Assembly (NCBI GenBank): GCA_947566705.1
Contig: CANOLA010000016.1
Span: forward strand, 1-46,091
Source: an uncultured Lachnospiraceae bacterium
GTDB taxonomy: Bacteria; Bacillota; Clostridia; Lachnospirales; Lachnospiraceae
Reading direction: 5' to 3'
DNA: 46,091 bases
The notes beneath the pieces were generated by a model. The model made no database searches. It worked only from the letters and a program-made list of their open reading frames with translations, and had not been told where the DNA came from. The translations under genes were made by a program, and so were the position numbers. Of the stretch, positions 7,556 to 22,116 are shown in pieces (the first letter of the stretch is position 1; every line of letters begins with the position of its first letter).

Positions 7556-7584
7556 TTGACTTTTTGGCAAAAAATATTTATACT
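7556..7584 (+). promoter_or_regulatory. Strong sigma-A promoter of the HD-GYP gene
   Basis: TTGACT (7556-7561) and TATACT (7579-7584) are separated by exactly 17 bases, about 30 bases before the chosen start codon. The 5' leader is therefore short and has no riboswitch. Confidence 0.75.
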
Positions 7585-7615
7585 AGTGGATAGAGATTAC
7601 ACTTGGAGGACGAAA

Positions 7616-8845
7616 ATGCGTAAGCTTGAACTTAAAGAACTTGAGATAGGAATGATTACTGCAGAACCGGTCATGACTCCTCTTGGCCAGGAGACGGCTC
7701 CCGCAGGCGCAGAAATCACTGAGCAGCTGCTTGACCAGATGAAGCTTTACCGTGTGGAATATGTCACTGTGGAAAGCGAAGACCAGGATTCCGTATCAGA
7801 GGACTCCCCGGCGCAGATGGCAGAGGCGGCCGTCCAGACGAAACCTCAGCAGGATGCAAAACCACAGCCTGAGGAAAAATCCCAGTCTCAGGAAGAACCT
7901 CAGGTACAAGAAGAACCAAAACCGGCACCTGCACTGAAAACAACCCATGCACAAAAAAGCAAAACCCACTCCCAGAAGGTGGCCGCTTCCTCTGAATTCC
8001 GAACATTCCAGATACAGTATGTGCAGGCAACGGACCAGATGAAACGTGCATTTACTGCCGCCGTTGAAAATAACCAGGAAATCGACACGAAACTTCTGCT
8101 TGGAAGTGTGGCGGATCTGTTCCGTTCCCGAAATACAATTTCAGAGCTGTTTGATATGATATACAATATGCGTACCGTGGCAGACTCCGTGTACGCACAC
8201 TGCCTGAACGTTGCGCTGATTTCACGTATGATCGGGCGTTGGCTCAAATACGAACAGCATGATCTGGACGTTCTGACACTTGCAGGTCTTCTGCATGACA
8301 TTGGCAAGCTGATGATTCCGGAAGAAATTCTTAATAAATCCGATTCACTGACTGATGAAGAGTTTGCACAGATTAAACAACATCCGAAATTAGGCTATGA
8401 GCTTCTTAAACTGCAGCCAAATATGGACTCAAGGATTAAAAAAGCCGCGCTTATGCATCACGAACGCTCTGACGGAAGCGGCTATCCGTCCCGTCTGACC
8501 GATGACTTTATCGACAGCTACGCAATGATTGTCGGTATTGCAGATGTTTACGATGCCATGACTGCTGCAAGGGCATACCGTTCCCCGCTTTGTCCGTTTG
8601 AGGTCATTGCAAATTTTGAGCAGGACGGTCTGCAGAAATACCATACAAAATATATTCTGAAGTTTTTAAAGGAGATTGCAGCTACATACCAGAGTAACCG
8701 CGTAATCCTCAGTGACGGACGAAGCTGTAACATCGTACTCATTAACCAGAACTCTCTTTCCCGTCCGCTTGTCCAGTTTGATGACAATTCATGCCTGGAT
8801 TTAGCCACGGCGAGCAAGGATTTGTATATTAAATCAGTTCTTTAA
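7616..8845 (+). CDS. HD-GYP domain protein, predicted c-di-GMP phosphodiesterase
   Basis: A 409-residue soluble protein. Residues ~1-55 form a small N-terminal domain (LKELEIGMIT...) common before HD-GYP. Residues ~56-125 are a Gln/Glu/Pro-rich low-complexity linker. The HD-GYP domain follows, with HDIGK at about residue 227, and MHHERSDGSGYP at about 280 supplies the HHE and GYP signatures. Proteins with intact motifs usually hydrolyse c-di-GMP. The start at 7616 is preceded by GGAGG; an in-frame ATG at 7556 lies inside the promoter and is rejected. The gene is monocistronic. It sits beside two c-di-GMP-I riboswitch loci at 13 kb and 22 kb, so it may tune their ligand. Confidence 0.9.
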   Translation: MRKLELKELEIGMITAEPVMTPLGQETAPAGAEITEQLLDQMKLYRVEYVTVESEDQDSVSEDSPAQMAEAAVQTKPQQDAKPQPEEKSQSQEEPQVQEEPKPAPALKTTHAQKSKTHSQKVAASSEFRTFQIQYVQATDQMKRAFTAAVENNQEIDTKLLLGSVADLFRSRNTISELFDMIYNMRTVADSVYAHCLNVALISRMIGRWLKYEQHDLDVLTLAGLLHDIGKLMIPEEILNKSDSLTDEEFAQIKQHPKLGYELLKLQPNMDSRIKKAALMHHERSDGSGYPSRLTDDFIDSYAMIVGIADVYDAMTAARAYRSPLCPFEVIANFEQDGLQKYHTKYILKFLKEIAATYQSNRVILSDGRSCNIVLINQNSLSRPLVQFDDNSCLDLATASKDLYIKSVL

Positions 8846-9003: not shown

Positions 9004-9597
9004 TCACCAGATATTCTCTGAATCCGATCCGATGACAGTCACTTCTTCCAGCTCCGGCCAGCACTCATACCAGTCGATTCCTTCTTTCTCTGCCCGGCGC
9101 TGTGTATAGGCATCAATTTCAAGATGTCTGATTCCCTCTATCCCCATATAATATAAAAATGGAGATTCAGGAAATAAATAGTCCAGCTCATCCAGCGATC
9201 CAATACGCAGTGACCAGAGGCCGTCATAGCCAGCTTCCTCCAGCGTGTTATTGTGATGATTAGACAGACTGCATACACTTATCTCACGACATCGTGATAG
9301 TTTTGCATATATATTAACGCGTATATCTTTCTGTTCATCCCCCAGTGCGCCGTTGAATGCTTTTACAAATTCCGGTATGGTCTTTGCATCCTTTTTTTTC
9401 AGCTCATATGTATACTGAACCTCAGCAAGGATTTCCTTGTTCCCCTGATATACCAGTTCTTTCTTACCGACCTCATCATATATCGCACGGGTTATCCTGT
9501 CATTCGGTTTCCATCCCCCAGCCCCACGGAATATTTCTTCTATTAAAATAACGGCAACAATACCGATGGTACAAGCTATTTTTTTCAATGCTTTCAT
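9004..9597 (-). CDS. Exported or membrane-anchored protein of unknown family, second gene of riboswitch locus A
   Basis: A 197-residue protein with an N-terminal hydrophobic segment at about residues 6-22, probably a signal anchor or signal peptide. The mature part has short leucine-spaced segments (LWSLRIGSLDELDYLF, IRHLEIDAY, LEEVTVIGS) loosely like leucine-rich repeats. I cannot assign it to a family. It begins 5 bases after the stop of the large secreted peptidase-like protein, so it shares the c-di-GMP-controlled transcript. A partner, inhibitor or anchoring role is possible, based only on position. Confidence 0.65.
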   Translation of the reverse strand: MKALKKIACTIGIVAVILIEEIFRGAGGWKPNDRITRAIYDEVGKKELVYQGNKEILAEVQYTYELKKKDAKTIPEFVKAFNGALGDEQKDIRVNIYAKLSRCREISVCSLSNHHNNTLEEAGYDGLWSLRIGSLDELDYLFPESPFLYYMGIEGIRHLEIDAYTQRRAEKEGIDWYECWPELEEVTVIGSDSENIW

Positions 9598-9602
9598 GGT
9601 TC

Positions 9603-12600
9603 TTACTCCCCAATTTCCAGAATATTTGAAAAATAGCTCAGTTTCTCAGCATATTCATCATAGTTAATATAATAAATTTTCCCCCAGCTTACAACTTCAA
9701 GAATATAACTATAACTTAGTCCGTCATATTTTAGATATTTGGTATAACCAATAATCGTCATATAATGAGAATTTGTTCTGCCATCTTCAGATTTATCAGT
9801 AATATCAGCCAAAACCTTAGCATTTTCTTTTTCTTTATACAGACCAATCTTATGAGTAAATGAATAATATGAGAAAACTACTGGTAAATCCCTCGAAATC
9901 ATTTTCTCAATTTTTTTTGCGGTCTGTGTTTTTTCATCATCCTTTCCTCCGCAAGACGGTGCCCAGGTCACTCCTAAATAAGGATGATTGTTTGACGATA
10001 AATATTTCTCCATTTCCTGTTCCATACGATAAGGAGTAACACCAAACAAACGGTGAATCGGGTCATCCCCTAACCGATAGCGGTCTATGTTAAATTCCGC
10101 ATAGCGCATATAATCGTTCTTTTTAATTAACCCTGTGTCATGATTATAGTCTATGCTGTTTGAAGGCGCCGAATATCCATCATGCTGCTGTGTCAGATAC
10201 AATTCAAGGTCTGTCATTGCAATGACGCCGCATCCCAATTCTTTCATCCGGTATGCCGGAGACGACATGTCATCCTTATCTCCTTCCGGCTTACTGTCAG
10301 ACCACCAGCCCTGATTTCCTCCGAACACATCATCCGCATTATGTATATCTTCAAATTTCAAATACCTAATCCCAGGATATCTGTTGGATAATTCTTTGGT
10401 AACACCAGTTCTAAACCACGGATCTTCATCCTCCTTATCCCCAATACCATCCCCATCCGTATCCTTAACAGTAGGATTACTGTGCATCATAAAATACTTC
10501 ACCGACTGAACCACATCCATCCCGATGTACCGGTCATCAACATTGTAAATAATACCGGTTTCCTCAAAATCAGTCAGCCCGTCACCGTCCGTATCCTTTA
10601 ACGCCGGGTCCGTATATATTACCTGTCCGTTCGGCAGTTTTATCCCGGCAGTTTCATAAATATCATATAAGCCGTCCCCGTCATTATCTGTCGGATCTAT
10701 TCTGTCTACTGTTTCATTCTGAATCATTCCAAACATTTTGGAAATCTCATCCGCAGAGTTTACATAGTAATACTGGCCGTTTGTCTGGTCCGCCATTTTC
10801 TGCAGTTTTTCATGCTCCGGAACGCTCTGGACATTTACTGCATAAATCTGTATTCCATAATCAATGCATACGTCAATTGTAGGCTGGTAATAATTCACAT
10901 CACCATCGCATATCAGCACAATAATCCTCTTCTTATCCGTCCTCCTGTACTCAAAAACATTCAGTGCCTTAAGCAGCCCATCATTAACATTCGTCCCCCC
11001 GCTGACATGTAATGAATTTATCTTTCTTTTTAATGCTGCTTTATTGTTAGTAAACCCTGCTAATATACTCGCATATGAAGAAAACGAAATAAGTGCAGCT
11101 GCGTCCCCGTCTTCCTGCATGGCGTCAACAAAATTACATAAGGATGTCTTGGCATTCTCCAGGCACATACCCCTCATACTTCCGGAAACATCCACAACAA
11201 AAGCTATGTCAAAGGAATTCGCAGTTTCATCCCCTTCGCTGCTTGTCCGGTAATCAATATTTTCTCTCCATGCCTCATACCATGTATTTTTATCAACCAG
11301 CATATAAGTTGAAAAATGAGTTGTTTCATACGAAACTGTATGATTCTTTGTATCAACAACACTTTCCCTGTCCAGAATCTGATACCATCCGTTGGCTTCA
11401 TCATACCATAAAACAGCCAGGTCTTCTTCTTTTGTATCACCCAGGGCTTTTTCATCATATGTAAATTTGATGGTGGCAGTATCAAACGACACTTTGCTTC
11501 TTATCTCCACCGGTACGCCGACCAGTCCCACAACGTCCCTTGACAGACTGTCCATTTCATAGACATTGATAATACCAACATTTTTATTGATGTTACCGCT
11601 GGTATTCATTGAAACATCAACCTTAATGATTCCACGCCCTTCATTATCCGAAAATGAATTTTCCACCGTCTGGTTTAATTTTTCATCCGGATCCAGTATA
11701 CCATTGCCATCCGTATCCTGAAGGAGCGGACTAAACCCCAGAAAAACATCATCGTAATCATCCAGACCGTCCCCATCCGTATCTGCAGCCAGCGGATCTG
11801 ATTTATATCGGGATATCTCATCAAAGTCAGTTAAGTTGTCCCCGTCCGTGTCTTCACATGCAGGGTCCGTTCCAGCGTCGATTTCCCGCTTATTGGTAAG
11901 TCCGTCCCCGTCCAAATCTTCATCCGCATCACTGGTTCCGTTATCATCCGTGTCAGTTAGTAAGGGATCTGTCATTGTCATATATAATTCCTGGTAATCC
12001 GTTAATCCGTCCCCGTCCGTGTCTGCTTTCTGGTAATCCAGTCCCAGTTTTGTTTCAACGCCGTCAGGCAGTCCATCCCCGTCTGTATCCAGTTCAAAAG
12101 AATCCCCCATGTATTCCTGACGGCTTTTCAGCTCATAGTTTTTGGGCACATCGCTTTTACTGCCATCCTTTCCTTTAAATCCAACAGAAACGCTGTTATT
12201 TTTTGGAATGTTGGCGTTATACCCCGCATTCTTTATTACATAATGGTTATTCTCATGGGACTCAATTGTTCCATTCCATATTTCTGTTATCTCTCTGTCA
12301 AAATCAAATTCCAGTACCCAGTCCTCCAGCGTGCTGTCTGTATTATTTTTAATTGATATATCAGCAGTAAAACCGTCTCCCCAGTCACTGGATACGGCAT
12401 AATCAATGTCATACGCATCCTCTTTCACATCGTTTAATTGTCCAATTAACTGGTATCCCTCCGGAAACCCCTTAAAATCCTCCTGCCCGCTGATGCCAAA
12501 CTCCACGCTCTTACCAGCTTCAATATCCTGGTTCCATCCGGCATTCTTTATCACATAATAATTTTCTGTATGGGCGCTGACTGCCGCATTCCAGATATTT

Positions 12601-12950
12601 GAAACCTCGCTGCTGTAATCCATTCCAAGGCTCCAGTTCTCAATTATATCATCTCCGGTATTTTCAATTTTTACAGTGGCATTATATCCGCCCTTCCAGC
12701 GTTCTGTTAAAGTAAAAGTCACATTAAAATTTTTCCCCTCATAAACGTCTTCTGCCGTAACGCCGTCATTATCCGACTCTGTTTTTTCATTTTCTGATAC
12801 ATCATCTCCTGCAATCATGGAAGTTTCCGTTTCCGCCGGAACCGTCTGGGCATATATCCCAATATCCATACCACCTGTTCCGACTGCAGCTGCCAGTAAC
12901 AACGCCAGCATCCGCTTTGTCATCTTTCCTGCTTTTTTTGCTCCCACCAT
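9603..12950 (-). CDS. Large secreted protein: two CBM2-like domains, type-3 repeats, vWA, papain/C39-like domain
   Basis: 1115 residues. Signal peptide at ~1-35. Two CBM2-like domains at ~70-170 and ~178-275 (GYNATVKIEN, NIWNA, YYVIKNAGWN, VEFGISG). Calcium-binding thrombospondin type-3 repeats (DTDGDGLTD) at ~285-430 and again ~750-860. A beta module at ~440-560. A vWA domain at ~580-745 with intact MIDAS (DVSGS, a Thr in GGTN, CDGD). The C-terminal ~230 residues look papain/C39-like: ELGCGVIAM supplies the Cys, NSHYMTIIGY the His, and VVSWGKIYYI resembles papain NSWG but has Val for the catalytic Asn. No sortase motif is seen. It follows a c-di-GMP-I riboswitch. An internal ATG at 12923 matches the paralog's start and is an alternative. 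Confidence 0.85.
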   Translation of the reverse strand: MVGAKKAGKMTKRMLALLLAAAVGTGGMDIGIYAQTVPAETETSMIAGDDVSENEKTESDNDGVTAEDVYEGKNFNVTFTLTERWKGGYNATVKIENTGDDIIENWSLGMDYSSEVSNIWNAAVSAHTENYYVIKNAGWNQDIEAGKSVEFGISGQEDFKGFPEGYQLIGQLNDVKEDAYDIDYAVSSDWGDGFTADISIKNNTDSTLEDWVLEFDFDREITEIWNGTIESHENNHYVIKNAGYNANIPKNNSVSVGFKGKDGSKSDVPKNYELKSRQEYMGDSFELDTDGDGLPDGVETKLGLDYQKADTDGDGLTDYQELYMTMTDPLLTDTDDNGTSDADEDLDGDGLTNKREIDAGTDPACEDTDGDNLTDFDEISRYKSDPLAADTDGDGLDDYDDVFLGFSPLLQDTDGNGILDPDEKLNQTVENSFSDNEGRGIIKVDVSMNTSGNINKNVGIINVYEMDSLSRDVVGLVGVPVEIRSKVSFDTATIKFTYDEKALGDTKEEDLAVLWYDEANGWYQILDRESVVDTKNHTVSYETTHFSTYMLVDKNTWYEAWRENIDYRTSSEGDETANSFDIAFVVDVSGSMRGMCLENAKTSLCNFVDAMQEDGDAAALISFSSYASILAGFTNNKAALKRKINSLHVSGGTNVNDGLLKALNVFEYRRTDKKRIIVLICDGDVNYYQPTIDVCIDYGIQIYAVNVQSVPEHEKLQKMADQTNGQYYYVNSADEISKMFGMIQNETVDRIDPTDNDGDGLYDIYETAGIKLPNGQVIYTDPALKDTDGDGLTDFEETGIIYNVDDRYIGMDVVQSVKYFMMHSNPTVKDTDGDGIGDKEDEDPWFRTGVTKELSNRYPGIRYLKFEDIHNADDVFGGNQGWWSDSKPEGDKDDMSSPAYRMKELGCGVIAMTDLELYLTQQHDGYSAPSNSIDYNHDTGLIKKNDYMRYAEFNIDRYRLGDDPIHRLFGVTPYRMEQEMEKYLSSNNHPYLGVTWAPSCGGKDDEKTQTAKKIEKMISRDLPVVFSYYSFTHKIGLYKEKENAKVLADITDKSEDGRTNSHYMTIIGYTKYLKYDGLSYSYILEVVSWGKIYYINYDEYAEKLSYFSNILEIGE

Positions 12951-12984
12951 AAATTATTTCTCCGTTCTTTTACTGGCATAAACG

Positions 12985-13023
12985 CAAAAAAGCCGCAATG
13001 AATCATTCCTGTTCACTGCGGCT
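12985..13023 (-). terminator. Terminator of c-di-GMP riboswitch A
   Basis: A 12-bp stem with one wobble (AGCCGCAGTGAA / TTCATTGCGGCT as transcribed) is followed by TTTTTT on the minus strand. Its ascending arm starts at the 3' end of the aptamer, so aptamer folding and termination probably compete. Confidence 0.85.
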
Positions 13024-13110
13024 GAACCGTCTTAAAACGCATACTGTACCCAAAAACTGCATTCCGTAGACTTCAGGCTTTGCGTCCCCAGATTTCCCTG
13101 GGTTTGCCTT
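13019..13110 (-). promoter_or_regulatory. c-di-GMP-I (GEMM-I) riboswitch, copy A
   Basis: Transcribed leftward, the RNA contains GGCAAACCC, a hairpin CCCAGG-GAAA-TCTGGG with the GNRA-type GAAA loop, then GGACGCAAAGCC. A second long stem-loop beginning CTGAAGTCTACGG and closing GGATGGTTCAG follows. These are the diagnostic GEMM-I elements. The base before CAAACC is G, the position (G20 of Vc2, numbering from memory) that selects c-di-GMP rather than cGAMP. It controls the secreted protein at 9603-12950. Confidence 0.92.
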
Positions 13111-13122
13111 TATGATATTTTT

Positions 13123-13151
13123 AGTTTACCATAAATATGAATCAAAGGCAA
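13123..13151 (-). promoter_or_regulatory. Promoter of riboswitch locus A
   Basis: TTGCCT and TAAACT are separated by 17 bases, just upstream of the aptamer. The same arrangement and similar hexamers occur at locus B. Confidence 0.55.
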
Positions 13152-13206
13152 GCTGCTGACTGAAAGAATATCATTTTTCTTCAATTTTCCTTTTTCACAG
13201 CTCCAA

Positions 13207-13944
13207 TCAATACACCGGTTTTTCCATCACGACAAAGAGGTATTTATCTATTTTCTGCGTTGTCCAGAAATAACTTGCACTAAAAAAGTCCAAAAGCTTT
13301 TCTTTGTCCGCCTTTAAATATAGCACCGTAAATATAGGATAATCATAAGGATAACGGTAATATACCCGCTTAAACAAACCTATCCCATCATCGACATCAA
13401 ATCCGACCGGATAATAAGGCTCCAGTTTTTCCAGTATCTCCCTGCTTTCTTCATCCGTAAACGCATCCACCAGCTCTTCAATGTCCGGAAGCTTTTCCCC
13501 GTCCTGATAATCTGAAATATCCTCCACCGCATTGATAAAATACTCTGACATCTCATTCAGCTTCTCTTTATGCCCATTGCAGAATGCTGTCAGTTCATTT
13601 ATTATCTTTTCCTCCTCTTTTTTTTCAGCTGACGGAAAATTTTCCCAATTGGCGGCAACATATAGCATGAATTCCGCCCAGGGTCTCCCATAAGAACCAT
13701 CAAAAGGTTTTTCAAAAGGTCCCGGCATAATATACATCCCCATTTTCCCACTGGAAGAAAATGGTATGAAATTCTCCCCTGTTTCCCCACCGGAAGGATA
13801 TTCCGCTGTTCTGGCGTCAGCAGAAGCCAGCATATTATACGCCCCTGTCTTTTCAATGACAGAAGCTATCCTGCTGCCTGTGCAAAGCAGTAAGCCAAGA
13901 CAGAGGACTGCTGCTGCCATCATCACTTTTTTTGTTTTAATCAT
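13207..13944 (-). CDS. Small exported protein, paralog family member 1
   Basis: About 245 residues from the ATG at 13944, which is preceded by GGAGAAGG; an in-frame start 30 bases earlier is weaker. There is an N-terminal signal peptide (MIKTKKVMMAAAVLCLGLLL). The conserved core is shared with the proteins at 16582 and 17474: ELTAFC..HKEKLNEMSEY, then AVEDISDYQDGEKLPDIEEL, FTDEES.EILEKL.PYYP, and a C-terminal part ending KIDKYLFVVME. The family is unknown to me and has no catalytic motif. It lies upstream of riboswitch locus A, outside its transcript, so its expression may be independent. Confidence 0.7.
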   Translation of the reverse strand: MIKTKKVMMAAAVLCLGLLLCTGSRIASVIEKTGAYNMLASADARTAEYPSGGETGENFIPFSSSGKMGMYIMPGPFEKPFDGSYGRPWAEFMLYVAANWENFPSAEKKEEEKIINELTAFCNGHKEKLNEMSEYFINAVEDISDYQDGEKLPDIEELVDAFTDEESREILEKLEPYYPVGFDVDDGIGLFKRVYYRYPYDYPIFTVLYLKADKEKLLDFFSASYFWTTQKIDKYLFVVMEKPVY

Positions 13945-14096
13945 TATCACCTTCTCCTCACGTGTGCTCCACATTGAGCAAAATAATCTCTTGTCATTCA
14001 GATTTGTTAAATCTTTTATGCAAAAGGATTACTATAATTTTGATTATAGAAGCAGAAAGAGGCAAATTCAACAACGGTTTTAGCTAAATACGGTTT

Positions 14097-15149
14097 TCAC
14101 TTATATCTCAACTTGTCAGCGTGCATAAGCATTGCCTGTTCTAAAGTTTTACAAAAATCTTCGTATTCACCAAAGGATGCTTGGGAACCAAGCCAATATT
14201 TGAACGTTTTTTCGCTTTCTTCTACCGTCATCCAATATTGAACCGGAAAAATGGAATTATTTTCCTTTCTGGGAGAAGTCATATTTATATATGAGATTCC
14301 TGTATAAGAAAAACATTTTTCTCCAATCCACATAGCATTTTTGTTAATTCGGATGATTTCCGGACAATGCATCAGTTTTCTTGACAGATGCTGCAATTGA
14401 ATGAGCACTGCCCCAAACAAAACACAAAGCAGAAATAATATGTTTATTATTAAGGAAATTTCCATGCCGACATGTACCAAAACAGCAATAAAAGCAAACA
14501 CCAAAAGTATAAGCCCGATTCCACTGATTCTCAGAATCATTTTTCGTTCATCATGCCTGATCTGCGCCGATGATATAACTATATCATTAAACGGAGTATC
14601 CTCCTTCAAAGGATTCAAAGCTTCTACTTTTTCTTCGATAGGCATATTATTGCTGCGTTGCTCTCTGATGTATTGCATTACTTGTTCTAATTTTCTATCC
14701 GAAAAACCAAAAAGCCGATATGCTTTTGTTCCATTTGGATTTCTAAAATATAAATATACTTTTGTAGAAACAATTACTATGTACCAAATTGTATGCATTT
14801 TCTTCTTGATGTCGGCTCCTTCAAAATCATCAATAGAAAGCTGTACTTTTTGTCCAATTTTTTTAATCACAACGCTGTCTTTTGTCACCAAAACGGTTAC
14901 TCTGCGAAATACAACCATAATTCCTGCAATTACAATTCCTGTCAATATCGCAATGGGCCATTTGGTTACCCTATAAAGCAAACTCCAGCCAATGGATCCA
15001 ATTAATCCAAATAATCTAAATATTTTAAATAATCCAAAAAAATATAAAAAATTCAAAAAGTAAAGAAGACATCCTATTAAGATTCCCCATACAAAAATAA
15101 ACTTGATTTGTATTTTTATACTACCCTTTACCGGTTTATTCTCTGTCAT
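14097..15149 (-). CDS. Multi-pass membrane protein of unknown function, coupled to the broken ATPase
   Basis: 350 residues with two hydrophobic hairpins, at about residues 13-40 and 48-80, then a soluble PH-like stretch (VTVLVTKDSVVIKKIGQKVQLS). A further pair of membrane segments is at about 207-250, followed by another soluble beta-rich stretch. The pattern of paired TM segments followed by beta domains resembles membrane proteins with bacterial PH-like domains, but I cannot name a family. Its ATG overlaps the stop of the upstream ATPase by 4 bases (ATGA), so it depended on that gene for translation. Confidence 0.65.
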   Translation of the reverse strand: MTENKPVKGSIKIQIKFIFVWGILIGCLLYFLNFLYFFGLFKIFRLFGLIGSIGWSLLYRVTKWPIAILTGIVIAGIMVVFRRVTVLVTKDSVVIKKIGQKVQLSIDDFEGADIKKKMHTIWYIVIVSTKVYLYFRNPNGTKAYRLFGFSDRKLEQVMQYIREQRSNNMPIEEKVEALNPLKEDTPFNDIVISSAQIRHDERKMILRISGIGLILLVFAFIAVLVHVGMEISLIINILFLLCVLFGAVLIQLQHLSRKLMHCPEIIRINKNAMWIGEKCFSYTGISYINMTSPRKENNSIFPVQYWMTVEESEKTFKYWLGSQASFGEYEDFCKTLEQAMLMHADKLRYK

Positions 15150-16402
15150 CTATAATCCTTTCCATCTGATTTCGTCAGATACCTTTTCAACAGAAAACAG
15201 CAAAAATACGGAAAAGTATATATTCCGTCACTAAACCCGATATTCCCCACACAAAATTTAATTCCGTATCTGATATCCTCATATTTATCACTTGCAATCA
15301 GCGTTCGCAGTGATTTGGCACGTCCATTGGTCGCCCTGGCCTCCACCGGAATCAGATTTTCGGCTGTACGAACAAAAAAATCTTCTTCCAATGTTGAATC
15401 GTTTCTTTTATAGTAATAAAGAGCATATCCGCTTTTTGACAATGCCTCAGCGACAATATTTTCATAAAGCGCCCCCTTGTATACATCCAGATTCCGGTTT
15501 GCCCGTAAATCTTCCTGCGCTTCTTCGTCCAACATTGCAACAAGCAGTCCGGTATCTTTCATATATATTTTGTATTTTGTATCATCATAATTACCCTTAA
15601 GCGGAAGTTCAGGAAAATCCAGACAGTAACAAAGACTGATTACCCCGGCATCTGCCAGCCATTCCACACAGCCACGGTAATCTTTGAACCTCGCTCCATG
15701 CGCAACTTTGGAAATCTGGAATTTTTTGTTATCCTTTGCAAGCTGCACAGGAATCTGGTTAAATATATTTAATATCCTTGTCTGGTCTACTCCTTTGGCA
15801 TACTTACGAATATCTTCCTTGTAATCGTTTAGCAGCTGTCTTTGCATTTCCAGCGTTCCCTCAAATGTACCACGGATAATATACTCACGCACTACAGCAG
15901 GCATACCTCCCAGAATACAGTAATCAAGGAACAGTTCATGTCCTGTTTTCATCATTATATCTGAAAGCGGCCGCAGTTCCTTCATGCACAAAAGCAGTTC
16001 TTCCGCAAAATCATCTTCATAACCCTTTGCCCATAAAAATTCCTCAAAATCCAGCGAATGCATTTCATAATCCGATTTAAAACCCACACTATTACTTTCA
16101 ATCCGCCTATAAGAAATTCCAAGGAGTGAGCCGCTGCAGATAACATCAAACCTCCCATCAATCTGAAAGAATTTCAACGAAGTGGCAATCTCCGGAAATT
16201 CCTGAAGTTCATCAAAAAAAATCATAGTTTTATTTTCTATGAATTTTTTGGATGGATCAATTCTTGAAATATTTTTTACAATGCCATTTGCACTATATCC
16301 ATCCTCTGTTATTTTTCTGTATTTAGGCTCTTCAACAAAATTAATATAAATCACACTCTCATAATTCTCTTCCCCAAAACGTTTAATAGATTATGTTTTC
16401 CC
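15146..16402 (-). pseudogene. Broken AAA/DUF4143 ATPase (N-terminus lost, nonsense codon after the P-loop)
   Basis: A 402-codon frame from GTG 16354 encodes most of an archaeal-type AAA ATPase with a DUF4143 C-terminus: Walker B MIFFDELQEFPE, then CSGSLLGIS, and the C-terminal nuclease-like part with VEARATNG. In the same frame upstream the sequence reads GKT-stop-SIKRFGEENYES, where intact relatives have GKTYSIKRFG. A TAA at 16391-16393 therefore replaces a Tyr codon right after the Walker A GKT. The ~40 residues normally before the P-loop are absent; unrelated sequence is there instead. No active ATPase can be made from the GTG frame because it lacks the P-loop. It may be a decayed gene or a sequencing error plus a deletion. 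Confidence 0.75.
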
Positions 16403-16581
16403 AACAAAATCCGAGGGAATAAATTGGGATTCATCTCAAAATCTGAGGAAATCCTTCCTTTGAACATCAGCCTGGCATTTTCCATCAGAACATCTCCATG
16501 GAATATACTGCAGCTCGCTTCTCCCCTCCTGCTGTTTTTCCGGGCAGACCAACTGAAAGATTATCCCATTTTTTAATTCCA

Positions 16582-17331
16582 TTATACATATGGCAGACTT
16601 TCCATTACTGCAAAGAGGTGTTCGTCTATTTCCTGCGTTATCCAGTAACGCCTTCCGCTAAAAAAGTCCAAAAATTTTTCTTTATCTCCTTTTAAATAAA
16701 ACACCTTATAGTCAGGATATGTATATTCCTCATCATAATCATAAGGATAATAGTAAGATACACCCTTAAACGAACCAAATCCCTCTTCGGCATCAAATCC
16801 GACAAGATAATAGGGCTTCAGTTTTTCCAGTATCTCTCTGCTCTTTTCATCTGTAAACATACCCGCAAGCTCTTCAGCATCCAAAAGCGGTTCCCCGTCC
16901 TGATAATCAGAAATGTTCTCTGCCGCATTAATCAGGTACTCTGATATCTCATTCAGCTTCTCTTTATGCTCTTTGCAGAATGCCGTCAGTTCATTCAGTC
17001 TTTTTTCACTCTCCTCATACGGAAGAGCAAGCACACCATTCTCTTCCTCAGGTGCCGGGAAAGCTTCCCAGTCGATGACAGCATCCATCGCAAGATCCGC
17101 CCAGGATCTCCCATAGGGACCTTCAAAAGATTCTTCAAAAGTTCCCGGGATAACATACATCCCTGTCCTTTCATTGGAAGAAAATGGTATAAGTTTTTCC
17201 TCTGCCCTATCGTCAACAGGCGCCAGTATATTATATGCCTTTGTTTGAATGGAAGAAGCCATCCTGCTGCCTGCCACAAGCAGTAAACCCAGACACAGGA
17301 CTGCGGCTGTCATCATCACTTTTTTCTTCAA
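16582..17331 (-). CDS. Small exported protein, paralog family member 2
   Basis: About 249 residues. I place the start at TTG 17331, preceded by AGAGGTGAAGAA, because from there it aligns with both paralogs (KKKVMMTAAVLCLGLLL signal peptide). A GTG at 17382 would add a charged 17-residue extension. The core matches the proteins at 13207 and 17474: ELTAFC.EHKEKLNEISEY, AENISDYQDGEPL, FTDEKSREILEKLKPYY, and a C-terminal EIDEHLFAVME. It is third after the riboswitch-B metallopeptidase and the lipoprotein, and probably on that transcript. Function unknown. Confidence 0.7.
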   Translation of the reverse strand: MKKKVMMTAAVLCLGLLLVAGSRMASSIQTKAYNILAPVDDRAEEKLIPFSSNERTGMYVIPGTFEESFEGPYGRSWADLAMDAVIDWEAFPAPEEENGVLALPYEESEKRLNELTAFCKEHKEKLNEISEYLINAAENISDYQDGEPLLDAEELAGMFTDEKSREILEKLKPYYLVGFDAEEGFGSFKGVSYYYPYDYDEEYTYPDYKVFYLKGDKEKFLDFFSGRRYWITQEIDEHLFAVMESLPYV

Positions 17332-17473
17332 TTCTTCACCTCTTATATTTCCCTTGTAATCCGATTCAGTATTTTCTATCACCCCATCTCCATGGCTGTG
17401 AAATGACAGCGTTTACAGCATGATTTTCCTTCTCTGCTTATATATTTGGACAGACATCCTCTTTGGTATTTAA

Positions 17474-18037
17474 TTATTCAATTGGAGTATATTCCCATAT
17501 AACAAAGAGATGTTTATCTATTTCCCTCACTTCAATCCAGTTAGTACTCATGTCATCCATAAAAGCCTCAAGTTCTTCTCCATCTGCCCCTATATATGCA
17601 ACCATATATAACTCAACCGGAGTCTGTTCATAAGGGTAATATACCTGCTTAAATTTATACCCATAATTACTTTCGGAAGGATAATAAGGCAGCAGCTTTT
17701 TCAATATCTCACTGCCCTCTTCATCTGTAAACATACTGGACAGTTCACCAATATCAGGAAGTTTTTCATCTTCTTTATAATCAGAGACATCCTCTACTGC
17801 GTTGATATAATATTCTGACATCTCATTCAGTTTCTCTTTGTGCTCATTACAAAACTCCGTAAGCTCATTCAGAATTTCTTCCCGCGCCTCTCTTGGAAAA
17901 GGTGACACTTTCTCCACCATATCCTCCTCAGAAGAGCTGGTCATGATGTCCTTCTCTTCCTTCTCTTCCATCCCGCAGCCCATCCCAAGCAATAAACTTA
18001 TGCAAATAATTCCAGCTGCCATCATCACTTTTTTCAC
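17474..18037 (-). CDS. Lipoprotein, paralog family member 3
   Basis: 187 residues starting at GTG 18037. Signal peptide with lipobox LGMGC; lipidation is predicted at about Cys21, followed by a charged linker. The core again reads ELTEFCNEHKEKLNEMSEYYINAVEDVSDY, with FTDEEGSEILKKLLPYYP and a C-terminal EIDKHLFVIWEY. Unlike the two soluble-looking paralogs, it is lipid-anchored. Its start overlaps the stop of the large metallopeptidase-like gene by 4 bases (GTGA), so the two are coupled and riboswitch-controlled. Function unknown; a surface partner of the large protein is plausible. Confidence 0.75.
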   Translation of the reverse strand: MKKVMMAAGIICISLLLGMGCGMEEKEEKDIMTSSSEEDMVEKVSPFPREAREEILNELTEFCNEHKEKLNEMSEYYINAVEDVSDYKEDEKLPDIGELSSMFTDEEGSEILKKLLPYYPSESNYGYKFKQVYYPYEQTPVELYMVAYIGADGEELEAFMDDMSTNWIEVREIDKHLFVIWEYTPIE

Positions 18038-21000
18038 TCTTTTACCTCCACCATTTTACAAGTTTTGGTATTCCATTTGTAATTCTTTTTTCTTTCTTTA
18101 TTATATGTAGGATTACTTTTTATTGCCTTTGAATTCTTTTGAAGATACCCATAAGGCACATAATACTGCAAATGATTTTCTTTGAAAGCATAAAGAATCA
18201 TCTCGATATCATTCGAGACTGCAGAACCGTTTTGTTTCATAATTCCCTTTACGTCTGGCATTCCATAACCACCTTTCTCATATGCTAATTCTTCATTTGG
18301 ATTTGGTTCATATCCATGGTTACAAGATGCCTCATAATACATATCCTTTAACCCCATAACATGTCCAAATTCATGTGCAATAACCCCTTCATAATACACG
18401 AATGGACGTAATTTCTGCCTATAAGTTACACACTTTCCACTTTTCTTGTTTTTATGCTTTTTATTAGTACAAATACTAGTGTACATAGTAACCTCACGAT
18501 TACAGTCTGATTTCCAGTTAACCCCGTCCATATGAGACCTTCCACACACTCCACTCTTCAAATGCACTTTAATATATCTCCCATATTTCTTCTTATCCTC
18601 TGTAACCTTTACGGAAAAGTTCACTTTCATACCTTTGTAAAAGTCATATTTAGAGCCTTTATAAACTCCACTCCAGCGGGATGTAATTCCATCTATCGCC
18701 AAATCCTTAAGAGTACAGTTTTTCCCTTGTCTTTTTATAATGTTTTCATTTTCTTCTTGTTGCTTCAATGTAAGATTTTCCGTTTTTAACACATCGCCAG
18801 CCTTTTCCTGAGCGTCATCATCAAAACGAACTATCAGATTCATCACCACATTATTTCCATTTACACGTAAATAAGAAGGAGAACTCATCTCATTATAAAA
18901 GTTTAAAGCAAGTTCAGGAAACATCTTTTCTACCGTATCCACCCGCAGCGGAGCCGGTCTGCCAAGAAGTGTCCCATGTCCTTCCCATGGATCCCCATCT
19001 TCATCCAGCATACCATCCTCGTTCCCTGGATACTCATCAACATCCAGTATACCGTCCCCATCCCCGTCTTCACTTGTAGGGTCGGAAATTACAGGCAAAA
19101 CATAAATTTCACCCAGCATCTGCTCCAGCGTAACTCCATCCTTATTTCTCAGGTTCCGGTATCTATTGCTCCATCCGGCATACCACCATGCTTCCTTATA
19201 ATACGTTTCAAGATACCCGGAAAAGGTCGGAAGAACCACCGTACCGTCCTCTTTTACAGTCACCCGCTCCTGGTTTACCTCCTCCCAGTCCGTCAGTCCA
19301 TCCCCGTCCGTATCTGTAGGTCCGTCACACACAAGCTCACTTTTAAGCACAATCGTACTCAGCCCCAGACCGGTAATCATGTGATAAGCCGTGTTCGGCA
19401 CATCCGGTACAAACCCGTAAATATAATCCAGTACCCCATCTGTAAAATTATGATAATTATTTAACAGTTTTCCTTTTGTCTGGTTAGCCAGCATATCATT
19501 CCATGAGCCACTCTGAGTTCTTGGATGTACAACCAGACAATGTATATCTGCTTCTGCCATATCCCCAATCAGAGAAAAACTGTTTGTATTTACATATGAA
19601 TTGCCCAAAAATACCGCTGTTTTAAAGGCGTCATCCCGCATCCCAAGACCGGTTAATGCGTTTACCTGCTTATCAATTAAATCCGCTCTCGGTCTTGTGT
19701 TTGCAAGCGTATTTATCATGGTATTTATCTGGGTAAGGTTACCTGCATATTTGCTGCCATAAGAGGTACGGACCACCTCCCCGTTCTGGTCAATGATGTA
19801 GAATCTCACGCTTTTGCTCTTATATTCCACAGTCCTGCATATTTGTGCAATATTTTTTGTAATTGACTGGAATTCTTTCGTTGTCAGCCCTTCCACATTA
19901 TTGTTAATACAAAAAGCAATATCCACCCTCTCCCGATCAGGCGTCTTTTCTGCTTCATCAGACCTCTCCATGGAAAATGCCTGAATTTCATCAGCTGCCA
20001 GGTCACTTTCCGGAAGCTCACCGCCCTCTGTCGCGGTTCTCTTCCCGTCACTTTCGTTCTGAAGTCCCATAGGAACCGGCATGGAGCCCTTCACCTCATT
20101 TTTTTCAGAAAGATTATCCACCTCAAATCCGATCTCACACAGCCATAACTCCATATCAAGGATGCAGTATGTCCCGATTTCATCGACGGTTGCCTGAATA
20201 CTGTGATGTTCTTCATCCACTGTCGTATTTACCGGACAGAGAAAATTCTCATCCTCGTCAAATTTAAATACCTGATACCGTTTGATTCCTTTCAGCTCTT
20301 CTGAACTGTACTCGTCATAAATATACTTTTCATTAATTTCAAAATTCAGGGTAATGCTTTCAATCCCCTCCGGGGACGTATCATTCAGCAGAAGAATCTC
20401 CGGTATGCAGCCCAGCATATATTCCTGCTGAACCGCATTTGCATACGCACTTTCGCGCACCAGCATCTCAGAGACTGCACCGCCGCTTCCTTTCACGGAA
20501 AAGCTCATCTGGTACTGTTCATTTTTATCATTGACCTGTTCCAGAACAGGATTGTCCTTGTCAAACGCATACTCATACCGGTACTCTGCATCCGGATATC
20601 CGAAAGTTTCCGGATTCAGCGGATCTAAGCCAATCTGGATTTCATATCCGTCCAAAAGTGTATCCCCGTCTGTATCTGCTTTTGCCGGGTCTGTCCCGTA
20701 TATTTCGACCTCCTCTCCATCCGTCAGCAGGTCAGAATCCGTATCCGCCATATAACAGTCTGTTCCCAGCTCCTGCTCCTTTAAGGTATTCAGCCCGTCC
20801 TCGTCAAAATCCCATTCGCCGTCTGCAATCCCCGACTCCGGGTCTGTATATTTCGTAGTGGGATCCGTTGAAGAATAAAATACCTCATAGCCATCCTTCA
20901 GGCCGTCCCCGTCGGTATCCGCATTATTTGCATCCGTTCCGTATTCTTCTTCATAATCGTCAGGAATCCCGTCCCCGTCAGTATCCTTCATCGAATCCCA

Positions 21001-21894
21001 GTCCTCACTGTCAGGATACTGATACTCTTCCTCACTCTCTGCTCCACTGTTTTCTTCACTATCCTCTGCCTCCACAGTATATTCATGCACAGAATACGCA
21101 TACGGTTCGTCATTTTCCGTACCGCCGCACCCGTTAAAGCCAAAGGAAACCGTTTTACCTGCCTTTATCACACTGTTGTGCCCTGCATTTTTCACCACGT
21201 AATGGTTTTTTTCACAGGATTCTATGTCTGCATTCCAGATTTGTGTGATCTCCCTGTCATAATCAAACTCCAGCACCCAGTCCTCAATTGCAGTATCACT
21301 GTTGTTTGTGATGGAAACTGCCGCGGAAAATCCGCTCTCCCAGTCATTTGACACCTCATAGCTGACGGAATAGTTCCCTTCATTTACAAGAACCGGCTTT
21401 CCAGGCAGCTTATATTCCTTCGGAAAGCCCGGGAAGTTTTCCTGTCCGCTGAAACCAAACTCCACACTCCTGCCAGCTGCAATATCCTCATTCCATCCGG
21501 CATTCTTTATCACATAATAATCTTCTTTGTGACTGCTGACTTCTGCGTTCCAGATATTGGAAATTTCGCCGCTGTAATCCATTCCAAGACACCAGTTTTC
21601 AATGCTGGCATCTGCGGTATTTTCAATTTTTACACTGGCATTGTATCCGCCCTCCCAGTGTCCCGTAAGGGTAAAAACCACCCTGAAATCTTTTCCCTCA
21701 TAAATATCTTCCATCGTAACGCCGTCCCAGCCGTCCGGCTCCGTTTTTTCACCGGCTGACACCTCCTTTCCGGCGGTCTCTGCAGCCATGGAAGTCTCCG
21801 TTCCCTCCGGAACCGTCCCGGCATATACCCTTGTATTCATACTTCCCATTCCGACTGCCGCTGCCAGTACCAGTGCCAGTATCCGCTTTGTCAT
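18034..21894 (-). CDS. Large secreted protein: two CBM2-like domains, type-3 repeats, degenerate vWA, metzincin-like peptidase
   Basis: 1286 residues. Signal peptide at ~1-25. Two CBM2-like domains at ~65-165 and ~175-275, nearly the same as those of the 9603 protein. Type-3 calcium repeats (DTDGDGIPDDYE, DTDGDGLKDG) at ~305-435. A beta module at ~445-620. A vWA-fold region (RVDIAFCINNNVEG) at ~660-840 where the MIDAS DxSxS is lost, another type-3 repeat, and a C-terminal domain. That domain has VIAHEFGHVMGLKDMYY, the HExxHxxGxxD zinc motif of metzincins (third ligand Asp rather than His). It is predicted to be an extracellular zinc endopeptidase. It lies behind c-di-GMP-I riboswitch B and heads an operon with a lipoprotein and a small exported protein. 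Confidence 0.87.
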   Translation of the reverse strand: MTKRILALVLAAAVGMGSMNTRVYAGTVPEGTETSMAAETAGKEVSAGEKTEPDGWDGVTMEDIYEGKDFRVVFTLTGHWEGGYNASVKIENTADASIENWCLGMDYSGEISNIWNAEVSSHKEDYYVIKNAGWNEDIAAGRSVEFGFSGQENFPGFPKEYKLPGKPVLVNEGNYSVSYEVSNDWESGFSAAVSITNNSDTAIEDWVLEFDYDREITQIWNADIESCEKNHYVVKNAGHNSVIKAGKTVSFGFNGCGGTENDEPYAYSVHEYTVEAEDSEENSGAESEEEYQYPDSEDWDSMKDTDGDGIPDDYEEEYGTDANNADTDGDGLKDGYEVFYSSTDPTTKYTDPESGIADGEWDFDEDGLNTLKEQELGTDCYMADTDSDLLTDGEEVEIYGTDPAKADTDGDTLLDGYEIQIGLDPLNPETFGYPDAEYRYEYAFDKDNPVLEQVNDKNEQYQMSFSVKGSGGAVSEMLVRESAYANAVQQEYMLGCIPEILLLNDTSPEGIESITLNFEINEKYIYDEYSSEELKGIKRYQVFKFDEDENFLCPVNTTVDEEHHSIQATVDEIGTYCILDMELWLCEIGFEVDNLSEKNEVKGSMPVPMGLQNESDGKRTATEGGELPESDLAADEIQAFSMERSDEAEKTPDRERVDIAFCINNNVEGLTTKEFQSITKNIAQICRTVEYKSKSVRFYIIDQNGEVVRTSYGSKYAGNLTQINTMINTLANTRPRADLIDKQVNALTGLGMRDDAFKTAVFLGNSYVNTNSFSLIGDMAEADIHCLVVHPRTQSGSWNDMLANQTKGKLLNNYHNFTDGVLDYIYGFVPDVPNTAYHMITGLGLSTIVLKSELVCDGPTDTDGDGLTDWEEVNQERVTVKEDGTVVLPTFSGYLETYYKEAWWYAGWSNRYRNLRNKDGVTLEQMLGEIYVLPVISDPTSEDGDGDGILDVDEYPGNEDGMLDEDGDPWEGHGTLLGRPAPLRVDTVEKMFPELALNFYNEMSSPSYLRVNGNNVVMNLIVRFDDDAQEKAGDVLKTENLTLKQQEENENIIKRQGKNCTLKDLAIDGITSRWSGVYKGSKYDFYKGMKVNFSVKVTEDKKKYGRYIKVHLKSGVCGRSHMDGVNWKSDCNREVTMYTSICTNKKHKNKKSGKCVTYRQKLRPFVYYEGVIAHEFGHVMGLKDMYYEASCNHGYEPNPNEELAYEKGGYGMPDVKGIMKQNGSAVSNDIEMILYAFKENHLQYYVPYGYLQKNSKAIKSNPTYNKERKKNYKWNTKTCKMVEVKE

Positions 21895-21951
21895 TTTCCT
21901 TTTTTGTTTTCACCATTATCACTTTCTCCTTTCCATTGGTGGCATATACGC

Positions 21952-21989
21952 AAAAAAGCCGCAATGAACCATTGATATTCACTGCGGCT
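21952..21989 (-). terminator. Terminator of c-di-GMP riboswitch B
   Basis: Stem AGCCGCAGTGAA / TTCATTGCGGCT as transcribed, followed by TTTTTT. It is nearly identical to the terminator at 12985-13023, with a different loop. Confidence 0.85.
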
Positions 21990-22076
21990 GAACCATCCTA
22001 AAATGCATACCATACCCAAAAACTGCATTCCGTAGACTTCAGGCTTTGCGTCCCCAGGTTTCCCTGGGTTTGCCTT
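21985..22076 (-). promoter_or_regulatory. c-di-GMP-I (GEMM-I) riboswitch, copy B
   Basis: The same elements as copy A: GGCAAACCC, CCCAGG-GAAA-CCTGGG, GGACGCAAAGCC, CTGAAGTCTACGG and GGATGGTTCAG. The GAAA-capped stem pairs G-C where copy A has G-U, so pairing is preserved. The selectivity base before CAAACC is again G, favouring c-di-GMP. It controls the operon 21894-16582. Confidence 0.92.
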
Positions 22077-22087
22077 TTCATGGATTT

Positions 22088-22116
22088 ATTTTATCATAAT
22101 TCCAAATTAAAGACAA
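22088..22116 (-). promoter_or_regulatory. Promoter of riboswitch locus B
   Basis: TTGTCT and TAAAAT are separated by 17 bases. Alignable with locus A, so promoter, aptamer and terminator were duplicated as one unit. Confidence 0.55.

What the first reader, a model, noticed from the sequence alone, without database searches (positions are those of the whole stretch)
9004..22116. Twin c-di-GMP-controlled loci with one secreted chassis and exchanged C-terminal peptidase domains
Seen: two loci share promoter, GEMM-I aptamer and terminator. Each encodes a huge secreted protein with the same order of signal peptide, two CBM2-like domains, type-3 calcium repeats, beta module and vWA-fold. The C-termini differ: papain/C39-like in one and HExxHxxGxxD metallopeptidase in the other. 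Known: in C. difficile a c-di-GMP-I riboswitch controls an adhesin-cleaving metalloprotease. Inference: this is a diversifying surface adhesion/proteolysis system switched by c-di-GMP, with small exported partners. I know of no description of this combination.
Basis: partly seen in the sequence, partly recalled or inferred. Interest (0 to 1): 0.85.

Follow-up and report, generated by a model that had tools for sequence, protein, structure and literature searches.

The report
Fibre-binding polymorphic toxins with c-di-GMP riboswitches
A gut bacterium carries two secreted, cellulose-binding proteins with interchangeable toxin-like ends, each followed by a likely protective gene and preceded by an RNA switch for the bacterium's "settle down" signal, so it may arm itself against neighbours when it attaches to a surface.

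Summary
Two c-di-GMP-I aptamers (57.0 and 56.3 bits) precede two secreted proteins sharing one chassis: signal peptide, two CBM2, TSP3 repeats, beta module, vWA-like fold. The C-termini differ: C39-like peptidase versus HEFGHVMGLKD metzincin-like.

The reading changes. Relatives show the chassis as the constant part of a polymorphic toxin-immunity family in Lachnospiraceae and beyond. Other C-termini include AHH and CDI-type nucleases, lipases, DUF3289, DUF4474 and RHS cores. The small partners behave as cognate immunity genes: among 49 loci, partners are homologous in 30 of 68 pairs with homologous C-termini and 0 of 1108 others. One AHH chassis is followed by Imm11, a named immunity family. 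N-terminally hydrophobic partners: 1 of 6 for nuclease/RHS payloads, 39 of 43 for the rest.

The riboswitch precedes 12 chassis-family genes in 9 genomes, over six payload classes, but most chassis genes examined lack it. Its terminator overlaps the aptamer, predicting an ON switch, unlike the PPEP-1 OFF switch. Toxicity, immunity and switching are untested, and both window payloads score below family cut-offs.

The parts
22088..22116 (-). Sigma-70-like promoter of locus 2 (TTGTCT, 17 nt, TAAAAT)
   Evidence: read directly; no experimental support
21980..22084 (-). c-di-GMP-I riboswitch aptamer of locus 2
   Evidence: RF01051, 57.0 bits
21957..21989 (-). Intrinsic terminator hairpin overlapping the aptamer 3' strand
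   Evidence: -20.2 kcal/mol; 5' arm starts 5 nt before the C92-equivalent
18034..21894 (-). Toxin-like protein 2 (P0002, 1286 aa): signal peptide, CBM2 x2, TSP3, beta module, degenerate vWA, metzincin-like C-terminus
21400..21693 (-). CBM2 domain 1 of protein 2; three Trp positions of the 1exg CBM2 are kept in the alignment
21082..21384 (-). CBM2 domain 2 of protein 2
18037..19032 (-). Metzincin-like payload (HEFGHVMGLKD, GIM)
   Evidence: below Pfam cut-off; homologues on the same chassis in three other genera and in L136
17474..18037 (-). P4, exported partner of protein 2, predicted immunity protein (overlaps the toxin gene by 4 nt)
16582..17382 (-). P5, paralogue of P4, predicted extra immunity gene
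13207..13974 (-). P6, third paralogue, just upstream of the locus-1 promoter, predicted orphan immunity gene
13123..13151 (-). Sigma-70-like promoter of locus 1 (TTGCCT, 17 nt, TAAACT)
   Evidence: read directly
13014..13118 (-). c-di-GMP-I riboswitch aptamer of locus 1
   Evidence: RF01051, 56.3 bits
12991..13023 (-). Intrinsic terminator hairpin overlapping the aptamer 3' strand
   Evidence: -20.3 kcal/mol
9603..12950 (-). Toxin-like protein 1 (P0001, 1115 aa): signal peptide, CBM2 x2, TSP3, beta module, vWA with DxSxS, TSP3, C39-like C-terminus
10734..11210 (-). vWA domain of protein 1
   Evidence: PF00092 1.8e-24
9606..10433 (-). C39-like cysteine-peptidase payload; one Cys and one His invariant in 10 aligned relatives
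   Evidence: below Pfam cut-off
9004..9597 (-). P3, exported partner of protein 1, predicted immunity protein; relatives in L120-L123 carry lipobox-like motifs and lie in tandem arrays

Best explanation
Each locus is a Sec-secreted polymorphic toxin operon. A constant cellulose-binding chassis (CBM2 x2, calcium-binding TSP3, vWA-like fold) presents a variable C-terminal toxin domain: here a C39-like peptidase and a metzincin-like peptidase, both expected to act on the envelope of competing bacteria. The next gene makes a membrane-tethered or exported immunity protein that shields the producer, and extra immunity copies (P5, P6) protect against related toxins. A c-di-GMP-I riboswitch with an overlapping terminator turns each operon on when c-di-GMP is high, in the attached state. 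Shown by sequence: chassis, payload exchange, payload-partner matching, riboswitch, overlap. Inferred: toxicity, immunity, target, ON direction, what the CBM2 domains bind.
For: One chassis carries many payloads, including recognised toxin domains AHH (L149, L161) and CDI_toxin_EC869_like (L142 28.4, L237 27.0 bits, cut-off 27), and DUF6531 with 29 RHS repeats in C69. Partner-payload matching: 30 of 68 pairs with homologous C-termini, 0 of 1108 without, 0 of 10000 permutations, eight matched classes. Imm11 after one AHH payload, 34.6 vs 22.1 bits. Tandem partner paralogues at 12 of 39 loci. Partner N-terminal hydrophobicity differs with payload, 1 of 6 vs 39 of 43. P4-family partners recur with metzincin payloads in other genera. 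Riboswitch upstream of 12 chassis-family genes. Terminator overlap in 11 of these 12 leaders.
Against: Both window payloads miss Pfam cut-offs, and profile searches of the PDB found nothing significant. 38 of 68 pairs with related C-termini have no detectably related partner, including window protein 2 against L136 at 42% identity. Only 1 of 15 partners scanned with Pfam matched a named immunity family; two matched DUF5104 and the rest nothing informative. Some chassis genes have no plausible partner (G357:C25). Most chassis genes examined, including four in this genome, have no riboswitch, and two of the twelve that have one (L127, G171) are interrupted genes. No toxicity, immunity or switching data exist. 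How a CBM-held protein would deliver nuclease payloads into a cell is unknown.
Confidence: 0.8

Rival explanations
1. One reading: a diversifying surface adhesion/proteolysis system in which c-di-GMP controls adhesins and adhesin-processing peptidases, as in C. difficile PPEP-1/CD2831.
For: CBM2, vWA and TSP3 are adhesin-like; peptidase-like C-termini; class I c-di-GMP riboswitches; PPEP-1 is under one (PMC6366702, PMC11477304).
Against: The same slot carries nucleases, lipases and RHS cores; partner-payload matching and Imm11 have no role in adhesin processing; leader geometry predicts the opposite sign.
Confidence: 0.1
2. Secreted fibre-bound digestive enzymes (peptidases, lipases) with partner inhibitors that protect the producer; nutritional, not antagonistic.
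For: CBM2 with the three tryptophans kept; CBM2 is also joined to M4 and S8 peptidases in this genome.
Against: Nuclease payloads with mostly non-exported partners and Imm11 make no nutritional sense; tandem, payload-specific partners are typical of arms races.
Confidence: 0.06
3. Toxins aimed at eukaryotic cells (protozoa or host) rather than bacteria, with the partner genes serving another purpose.
For: Many relatives come from rumen and gut assemblies (titles); peptidase and lipase toxins can act on eukaryotes (general knowledge).
Against: Dedicated, mostly exported and often duplicated partners matched to each payload imply that the producer is itself vulnerable.
Confidence: 0.04

Closest known systems
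Polymorphic toxin systems (Zhang et al. 2012, PMC3482391; passages read)
   Same: Constant N-terminal region, exchangeable C-terminal toxins including a Tox-PLC39 class and several metallopeptidase classes, adjacent immunity genes, a Sec-dependent route, RHS versions
   Different: vWA, TSP3, thrombospondin, cellulose, carbohydrate-binding and riboswitch do not occur in the held text (first 300,000 of 357,715 characters); chassis and c-di-GMP leader are additional
TANFOR polymorphic toxins of Bacteroidetes (Jana et al. 2020, PMC7073777; outline and section 6 read)
   Same: A new N-terminal domain defined as a toxin class by similar criteria: Sec signal, AHH and other toxin C-termini, known or putative immunity genes downstream
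   Different: Other N-terminal domain, other phylum; no riboswitch in the section read
LXG/T7SS toxins of Firmicutes (PMC5555719; start of abstract in the listing only)
   Same: Polymorphic antibacterial toxins in Firmicutes; in one sister genome (G016) LXG and T7SS genes also follow c-di-GMP-I riboswitches
   Different: No LXG/WXG domain here; Sec signal and CBM2 instead
C. difficile PPEP-1 (Zmp1)/CD2831 c-di-GMP module (PMC6366702, PMC11477304; passages read)
   Same: Secreted metallopeptidase gene behind a class I c-di-GMP riboswitch
   Different: Class I switches are OFF there; PPEP-1 cleaves the cell's own adhesins; as far as I recall it has no such chassis and no immunity gene
B. thuringiensis Bc2 class I riboswitch (passage in PMC6366702)
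   Same: Class I riboswitch acting as a transcriptional ON switch before a surface adhesin gene
   Different: Controls a collagen adhesion protein, no toxin-immunity operon described there
Pectobacterium diguanylate cyclase and bacteriocins (PMC9144310; start of abstract in the listing only)
   Same: Links c-di-GMP signalling to bacteriocin production
   Different: Gram-negative plant pathogen, export by the flagellar type III route; no riboswitch-led toxin operon mentioned in what I saw

Membership tests
Polymorphic toxin system | Constant N-terminal trafficking region with variable C-terminal domains | tested here: met
Polymorphic toxin system | C-termini include established toxin domains | tested here: met
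   in relatives, not in the window copies: AHH above cut-off, CDI_toxin_EC869_like at 28.4 and 27.0 vs 27 bits; RHS/DUF6531
Polymorphic toxin system | Cognate immunity gene directly downstream | tested here: met
   35 of 39 loci with an ORF within 150 bp; matching 30/68 vs 0/1108; Imm11 in 1 of 15 partners scanned
Polymorphic toxin system | Orphan toxin/immunity cassettes near the locus | tested here: inconclusive
   P6 apart from its operon; payload fragment beside an extra partner in G192:C62
Polymorphic toxin system | Toxicity neutralised by the partner | not testable with these tools
   needs experiment
c-di-GMP-I riboswitch (RF01051) | Covariance-model score above gathering | tested here: met
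   57.0 and 56.3 vs 35 bits
Transcriptional ON riboswitch | Ligand-bound fold excludes the terminator | tested here: inconclusive
   5' arm overlaps the aptamer 3' strand; no ligand assay, no known ON/OFF leader was run through the same scan
Peptidase C39-like (PF13529) | Score above cut-off; catalytic Cys/His | tested here: inconclusive
   20.0 vs 24 bits; C72 and H227 (numbering of A4's first row) invariant in 10 rows
Metzincin-type metallopeptidase | HExxHxxGxx(H/D) and Met-turn; family score | tested here: inconclusive
   motif present in protein 2 and L136; M6 19.7 vs 22 bits
PPEP-1-type peptidase | Family match | tested here: inconclusive
   no PPEP-type family among Pfam or NCBIfam hits; no search with PPEP-1 itself
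LXG/WXG T7SS toxin | N-terminal LXG or WXG domain | tested here: not met
   no such hit in either window protein
CBM2 | Pfam CBM_2 above cut-off; surface tryptophans | tested here: met
   alignment of CBM2-1 of protein 2 to 1exg keeps three Trp; that these are the binding residues is recalled

The most novel reading that the evidence does not exclude
A matrix- or fibre-tethered antibacterial weapon armed by attachment. When c-di-GMP rises on settling, ON riboswitches release a set of toxins that CBM2 domains hold on plant fibre or on the producer's own polysaccharide, so that the colonised surface itself is hostile to late arrivals. C-di-GMP riboswitches would then be an arming signal for antagonism in these Clostridia (CBM2 toxins here, LXG/T7SS loci in G016).
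Probability: 0.25. Interest if true: 0.85.

Novelty: new variant of a known kind. Interest (0 to 1): 0.65.

Why it matters
It would add a class of Sec-secreted polymorphic toxins to gut Lachnospiraceae, abundant commensals, and name some fifty candidate toxin-immunity loci. It would also tie interbacterial antagonism to the attached lifestyle through a cis-acting RNA, which makes "does settling arm the cell?" testable with a reporter. The chassis occurs in named strains, among them Roseburia faecis M72 (L131).

Tried and rejected
PDB profile searches with both C-termini gave nothing significant. NCBIfam gave only partial, below-cut-off domain hits for the two large proteins. P3-P7 had no informative Pfam family; P8 is AAA_14/DUF4143. 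DUF4474-with-toxin and DUF5104 searches in the paper library returned nothing. A strict "riboswitch belongs to the chassis" idea was rejected: in the window and the 43 loci scanned with all Rfam models 7 chassis genes have one. A strict one-payload-one-partner rule was rejected (38 of 68 related pairs differ). A general "c-di-GMP-I controls toxins in the family" claim was not supported: phmmer of chassis, T7SS, LXG and RTX queries on 30 of the 54 riboswitch loci (about 1.5 kb downstream each) found two chassis genes and nothing else. In the genus, the LXG/T7SS association rests on one genome, G016. In one search the listing of first downstream ORFs mostly failed because of a poor motif pattern and says nothing.

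Controls, dropped rows and weak points. From, 36 ORFs with partial chassis matches (fragments, CBM2-only proteins, pieces of interrupted genes) were left out, L128 and L131 were left out as duplicates of G036 and G027, and three CBM2-only ORFs after (42 to 39). Several relatives are interrupted genes (L125, L127, L129, L132, L134, L140), and the C72 copy has its first start codon inside CBM2-1. In one search, 55 loci became 49 (one near-duplicate, five without an ORF within 700 bp). Pairs share ancestry, so permutation counts overstate independence. One search, with another cut of the C-terminus, gave 19 of 38 and 0 of 557 for immediate partners; there L080 and L159 shared a more distant partner without a detected C-terminal link, a link that one search does find. 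The P4-P6 profile also gave one weak hit outside the metzincin class (L078, E 0.0015). In one search the threshold (15-residue mean 1.8) was chosen by me; of the 43 'other' payloads, 28 I had assigned to peptidase, lipase, DUF or C8-type classes and 15 are unknown; five loci without a downstream ORF, and L086 because its nearest called ORF lay 557 bp away, did not enter. The one nuclease partner above threshold (L142, 1.95) does not look like a signal peptide to me; four of the 43 fall below it (L134, L136, L158, L243). My terminator scan first missed L135 (hairpin longer than the limit); one search repeated it with a longer limit. One of the 26 genus riboswitches was left out because its downstream stretch is not readable. 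The C92 assignment and Vc2 numbering are recalled, not from a call. The lactococcin-972 likeness in L186 is recalled and had no Pfam support.


Full report
WHAT IS IN THE WINDOW. The window is a whole contig (G000:C16) of a 3.4 Mb, 160-contig assembly of about 84% completeness. The genus set contains a genome whose contig matches Roseburia faecis M72 in length and in the chassis match (G027:C70 and L131, both 143,514 bp), so this is a Lachnospiraceae. Two RF01051 aptamers (13014-13118 and 21980-22084, minus strand) score 56.3 and 57.0 bits against a gathering score of 35. They are the only two matches in the assembly. The leaders are 87% identical over 178 nt. Each has a promoter-like TTGxCT-17 nt-TAAAxT just upstream and a strong terminator-like hairpin just downstream. 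Each precedes a large gene: P0001 (9603-12950, 1115 aa) and P0002 (18034-21894, 1286 aa). Pfam gives CBM_2 twice and TSP3_bac in both. VWA appears in P0001 only; in P0002 the alignment places a degenerate vWA-like region without the DxSxS motif. The two proteins align over about 590 residues from the N-terminus (44% identity) and not beyond. P0001 ends in a domain with weak C39_2 similarity. P0002 ends in HEFGHVMGLKD with a following GIM, with weak M10, M6 and M43 similarity. All scores for these two ends are under the curated cut-offs.

THE CHASSIS IS A FAMILY. In 62 genomes of the genus, full chassis relatives occur in this genome and in G036 and G027. This genome has further copies on contigs C72, C8, C4 and C69, plus CBM2 proteins of other build on C98, C26, C1, C154 and C14. 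A profile of eight chassis sequences (A1) found relatives in 26 of 397 family genomes at E <= 1e-30, this one included, and in 56 loci of the named genome collection. By their titles most of the latter are Lachnospiraceae and other Clostridia; one is a Paenibacillus, one a Prevotella MAG, one a planctomycete with CBM2 similarity only, and one (L128) is titled Muribaculaceae although its contig has the length of G036:C11 of this genus. I analysed 39 chassis proteins from the window, this genome, G036, G027 and the named loci (the ORFs left out are told under Tried and rejected) and 16 more from family genomes.

THE C-TERMINI ARE TOXIN-TYPE AND EXCHANGED. Pfam families that reach their cut-off behind this chassis are: AHH nuclease (L149, L161), CDI_toxin_EC869_like nuclease (L142 at 28.4 and L237 at 27.0 bits, cut-off 27), DUF3289 (L126, L137, L235), Lipase_3 (L133, L155, L243) and DUF4474 (G036, G027, L236, L244). 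One own-genome copy (C69, 2848 aa) continues after vWA into DUF6531, SH3 and 29 RHS repeats. A 2918-aa relative, L159, I take for the same type from its length and sequence; Pfam on its last 400 residues gave nothing. In the first set of 39 C-termini BLAST gives 20 groups, 13 of them singletons. The C39-like group includes W_P1, C72, L120-L123, L135 and the distant L124, L125, L132, L144; one Cys and one His are invariant in the 10 aligned members. The metzincin-like group is W_P2 and L136, plus chassis proteins in G192, G160 and G399.

THE PARTNERS BEHAVE AS IMMUNITY GENES. (1) Position: 35 of 39 chassis genes have a same-strand ORF within 150 bp downstream. (2) Duplication: 12 of 39 loci have tandem paralogues of the partner, for example four lipobox-type proteins in L120 and four 247-254-aa copies in L124; in the window P4, P5 and P6 are paralogues. 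(3) Matching: over 49 loci, partners are homologous in 30 of 68 pairs with homologous C-termini and in 0 of 1108 pairs without; no permutation in 10000 reached 30. Eight matched classes emerge, including C39-like with the P3 family (six loci) and metzincin-like with the P4 family (W_P2, G192, G160, G399; profile evidence for G192 and G399). (4) A named immunity family: the gene after the AHH chassis of L149 is Imm11, 34.6 bits against a cut-off of 22.1; this is one of 15 partners scanned with Pfam, two others being DUF5104. (5) Location: an N-terminal hydrophobic stretch is present in 1 of 6 partners of nuclease/RHS payloads and in 39 of 43 partners of all other payloads, 15 of the 43 being unknown (Fisher p 0.0004). 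This is what one expects if immunity sits where the toxin acts. Counter-evidence: 38 of 68 related C-terminus pairs have no detectably related partner, among them W_P2/L136 at 42% identity and the distant C39-like L124 group; and G357:C25 has no plausible partner.

THE RIBOSWITCH. In the window and 43 loci scanned with all Rfam models there are 7 RF01051 matches, and all 7 lie upstream of a chassis gene (W_P1, W_P2, G036, L127, L135, L137, L138). In 25 family genomes chosen because they hold chassis matches, RF01051 has 54 matches in 16 genomes. Against the chassis positions, six of the 54 lie just upstream of a chassis-family ORF (G258 twice, one of them at the same coordinates as L137; G171; G176 twice; G273). 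That makes 12 genes in 9 genomes, the genomes being told apart by handle and contig length. One of these, G176:C80, is a CBM2-subtilase without vWA; two sit before interrupted genes (L127; G171). Payloads behind the switch include C39-like, metzincin-like, DUF4474, DUF3289, an EC869-like nuclease and subtilase, so the switch goes with the chassis side and not with one payload. It is still a minority feature: the other own-genome copies (C72, C8, C4, C69) and most relatives scanned lack it.

DIRECTION OF THE SWITCH. In 11 of the 12 chassis leaders the terminator's 5' arm starts 3 to 6 nt upstream of the aptamer cytosine that I take to be C92 of Vc2 (recalled numbering). In G171 the best-scoring hairpin lies elsewhere and the overlapping one starts at -1. 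In the window copies the arm takes bases that the Rfam structure pairs in the aptamer's 3' closing strand. With everything up to that cytosine removed, the hairpin falls from about -20 to about -3.7 kcal/mol. Ligand-bound aptamer and full terminator should therefore exclude each other, which predicts read-through at high c-di-GMP. Within the genus, 14 of 22 other leaders share this geometry, 7 have a separate downstream terminator and 1 is unclear. C. difficile class I switches are OFF and B. thuringiensis Bc2 is ON (PMC6366702, passages), so both signs exist; I had no leader of known sign to test the scan on, and the inference needs an assay. The cell has c-di-GMP machinery: 19 GGDEF matches and an HD-GYP-like gene at 7556-8845 next to P3.

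MECHANISM. Proposed: attachment raises c-di-GMP; the leaders read through; chassis protein and immunity are made from one operon; the protein is exported by Sec (signal-like N-terminus, read by eye); CBM2 domains hold it on a polysaccharide (three tryptophans of 1exg align in CBM2-1 of protein 2; their binding role is recalled); the C-terminal peptidase attacks envelope proteins of competitors; P3 or P4 protects the producer. Shown by sequence: the parts, their exchange, and partner matching. Inferred: every functional step.

COMPARISON AND NOVELTY. The criteria resemble those used for TANFOR toxins (PMC7073777, section 6) and for polymorphic toxins in general (PMC3482391, passages), where a Tox-PLC39 class and metallopeptidase toxins are listed. 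In the held part of that survey vWA, TSP3, thrombospondin, cellulose and riboswitch do not occur. Paper-library searches for the combination listed no paper on it; these are listings of open-licence papers only, and searches listed 15 of 22 and 15 of 37. One listed paper links a diguanylate cyclase to bacteriocins in Pectobacterium (PMC9144310, abstract start only). I therefore call it a new variant of a known kind: a polymorphic toxin class with a new chassis and, in part, c-di-GMP riboswitch control.

Noticed in passing
window 7556-8845 (+): HD-GYP-type c-di-GMP phosphodiesterase-like gene (HD_5 4.4e-27; NosR-family response-regulator PDE model far below cut-off) convergent to P3, beside the riboswitch-controlled loci.
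   Followed up: partly
window 7370-7469 (-): SAM riboswitch (66.6 bits) upstream of the ORF at 6096-7280.
   Followed up: no
window 14097-16354 (-): Between P5 and P6 lie an AAA_14/DUF4143 ATPase ORF (15146-16354, GTG start) and a membrane-protein-like ORF (14097-15149); they interrupt the immunity paralogue array.
   Followed up: no
L178, L180, L188 (G016): In a sister genome, c-di-GMP-I riboswitches with overlapping terminators precede LXG toxin, DUF4176, YwqH-like, WXG100, YukD and FtsK/EssC-like genes: possible c-di-GMP control of a T7SS and its toxins.
   Followed up: partly
L183, L184 (G051, G036): c-di-GMP-I riboswitch followed, in L183, by tandem 246-aa paralogues and then an RTX-repeat protein of more than 1.1 kaa; in L184 a 1590-aa RTX protein follows. 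The order, small genes before the large one, differs from the CBM2 loci.
   Followed up: partly
L186 (G030): c-di-GMP-I riboswitch before a 93-aa secreted peptide, a 734-aa protein and an ABC ATPase, resembling a lactococcin-972 operon (recalled; the peptide had no Pfam hit).
   Followed up: no
L080 5600-14146 (own genome C69): 2848-aa protein fusing the CBM2/TSP3/vWA chassis to DUF6531, SH3 and 29 RHS repeats, followed by a small ORF without N-terminal hydrophobic stretch.
   Followed up: partly
L086 10789-10885 (G036): This chassis riboswitch has A where the window copies have G, next to the conserved GC pair; such a change is recalled to mark cGAMP-binding variants in Geobacter.
   Followed up: no
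L230 (G192:C62): Beside a full metzincin chassis gene lies an interrupted payload fragment with its own extra partner gene, like a leftover cassette.
   Followed up: partly
L081 6032-9817 (own genome C98): CBM2 pair fused to a thermolysin-type M4 peptidase with propeptide motif; a neighbouring ORF repeats 251 residues of its C-terminal part at 70% identity.
   Followed up: no
L234 (G176:C80): Riboswitch-led CBM2 protein with a subtilase (Peptidase_S8) and carboxypeptidase-regulatory domains instead of vWA and toxin end, followed by a short lipoprotein-like ORF.
   Followed up: partly
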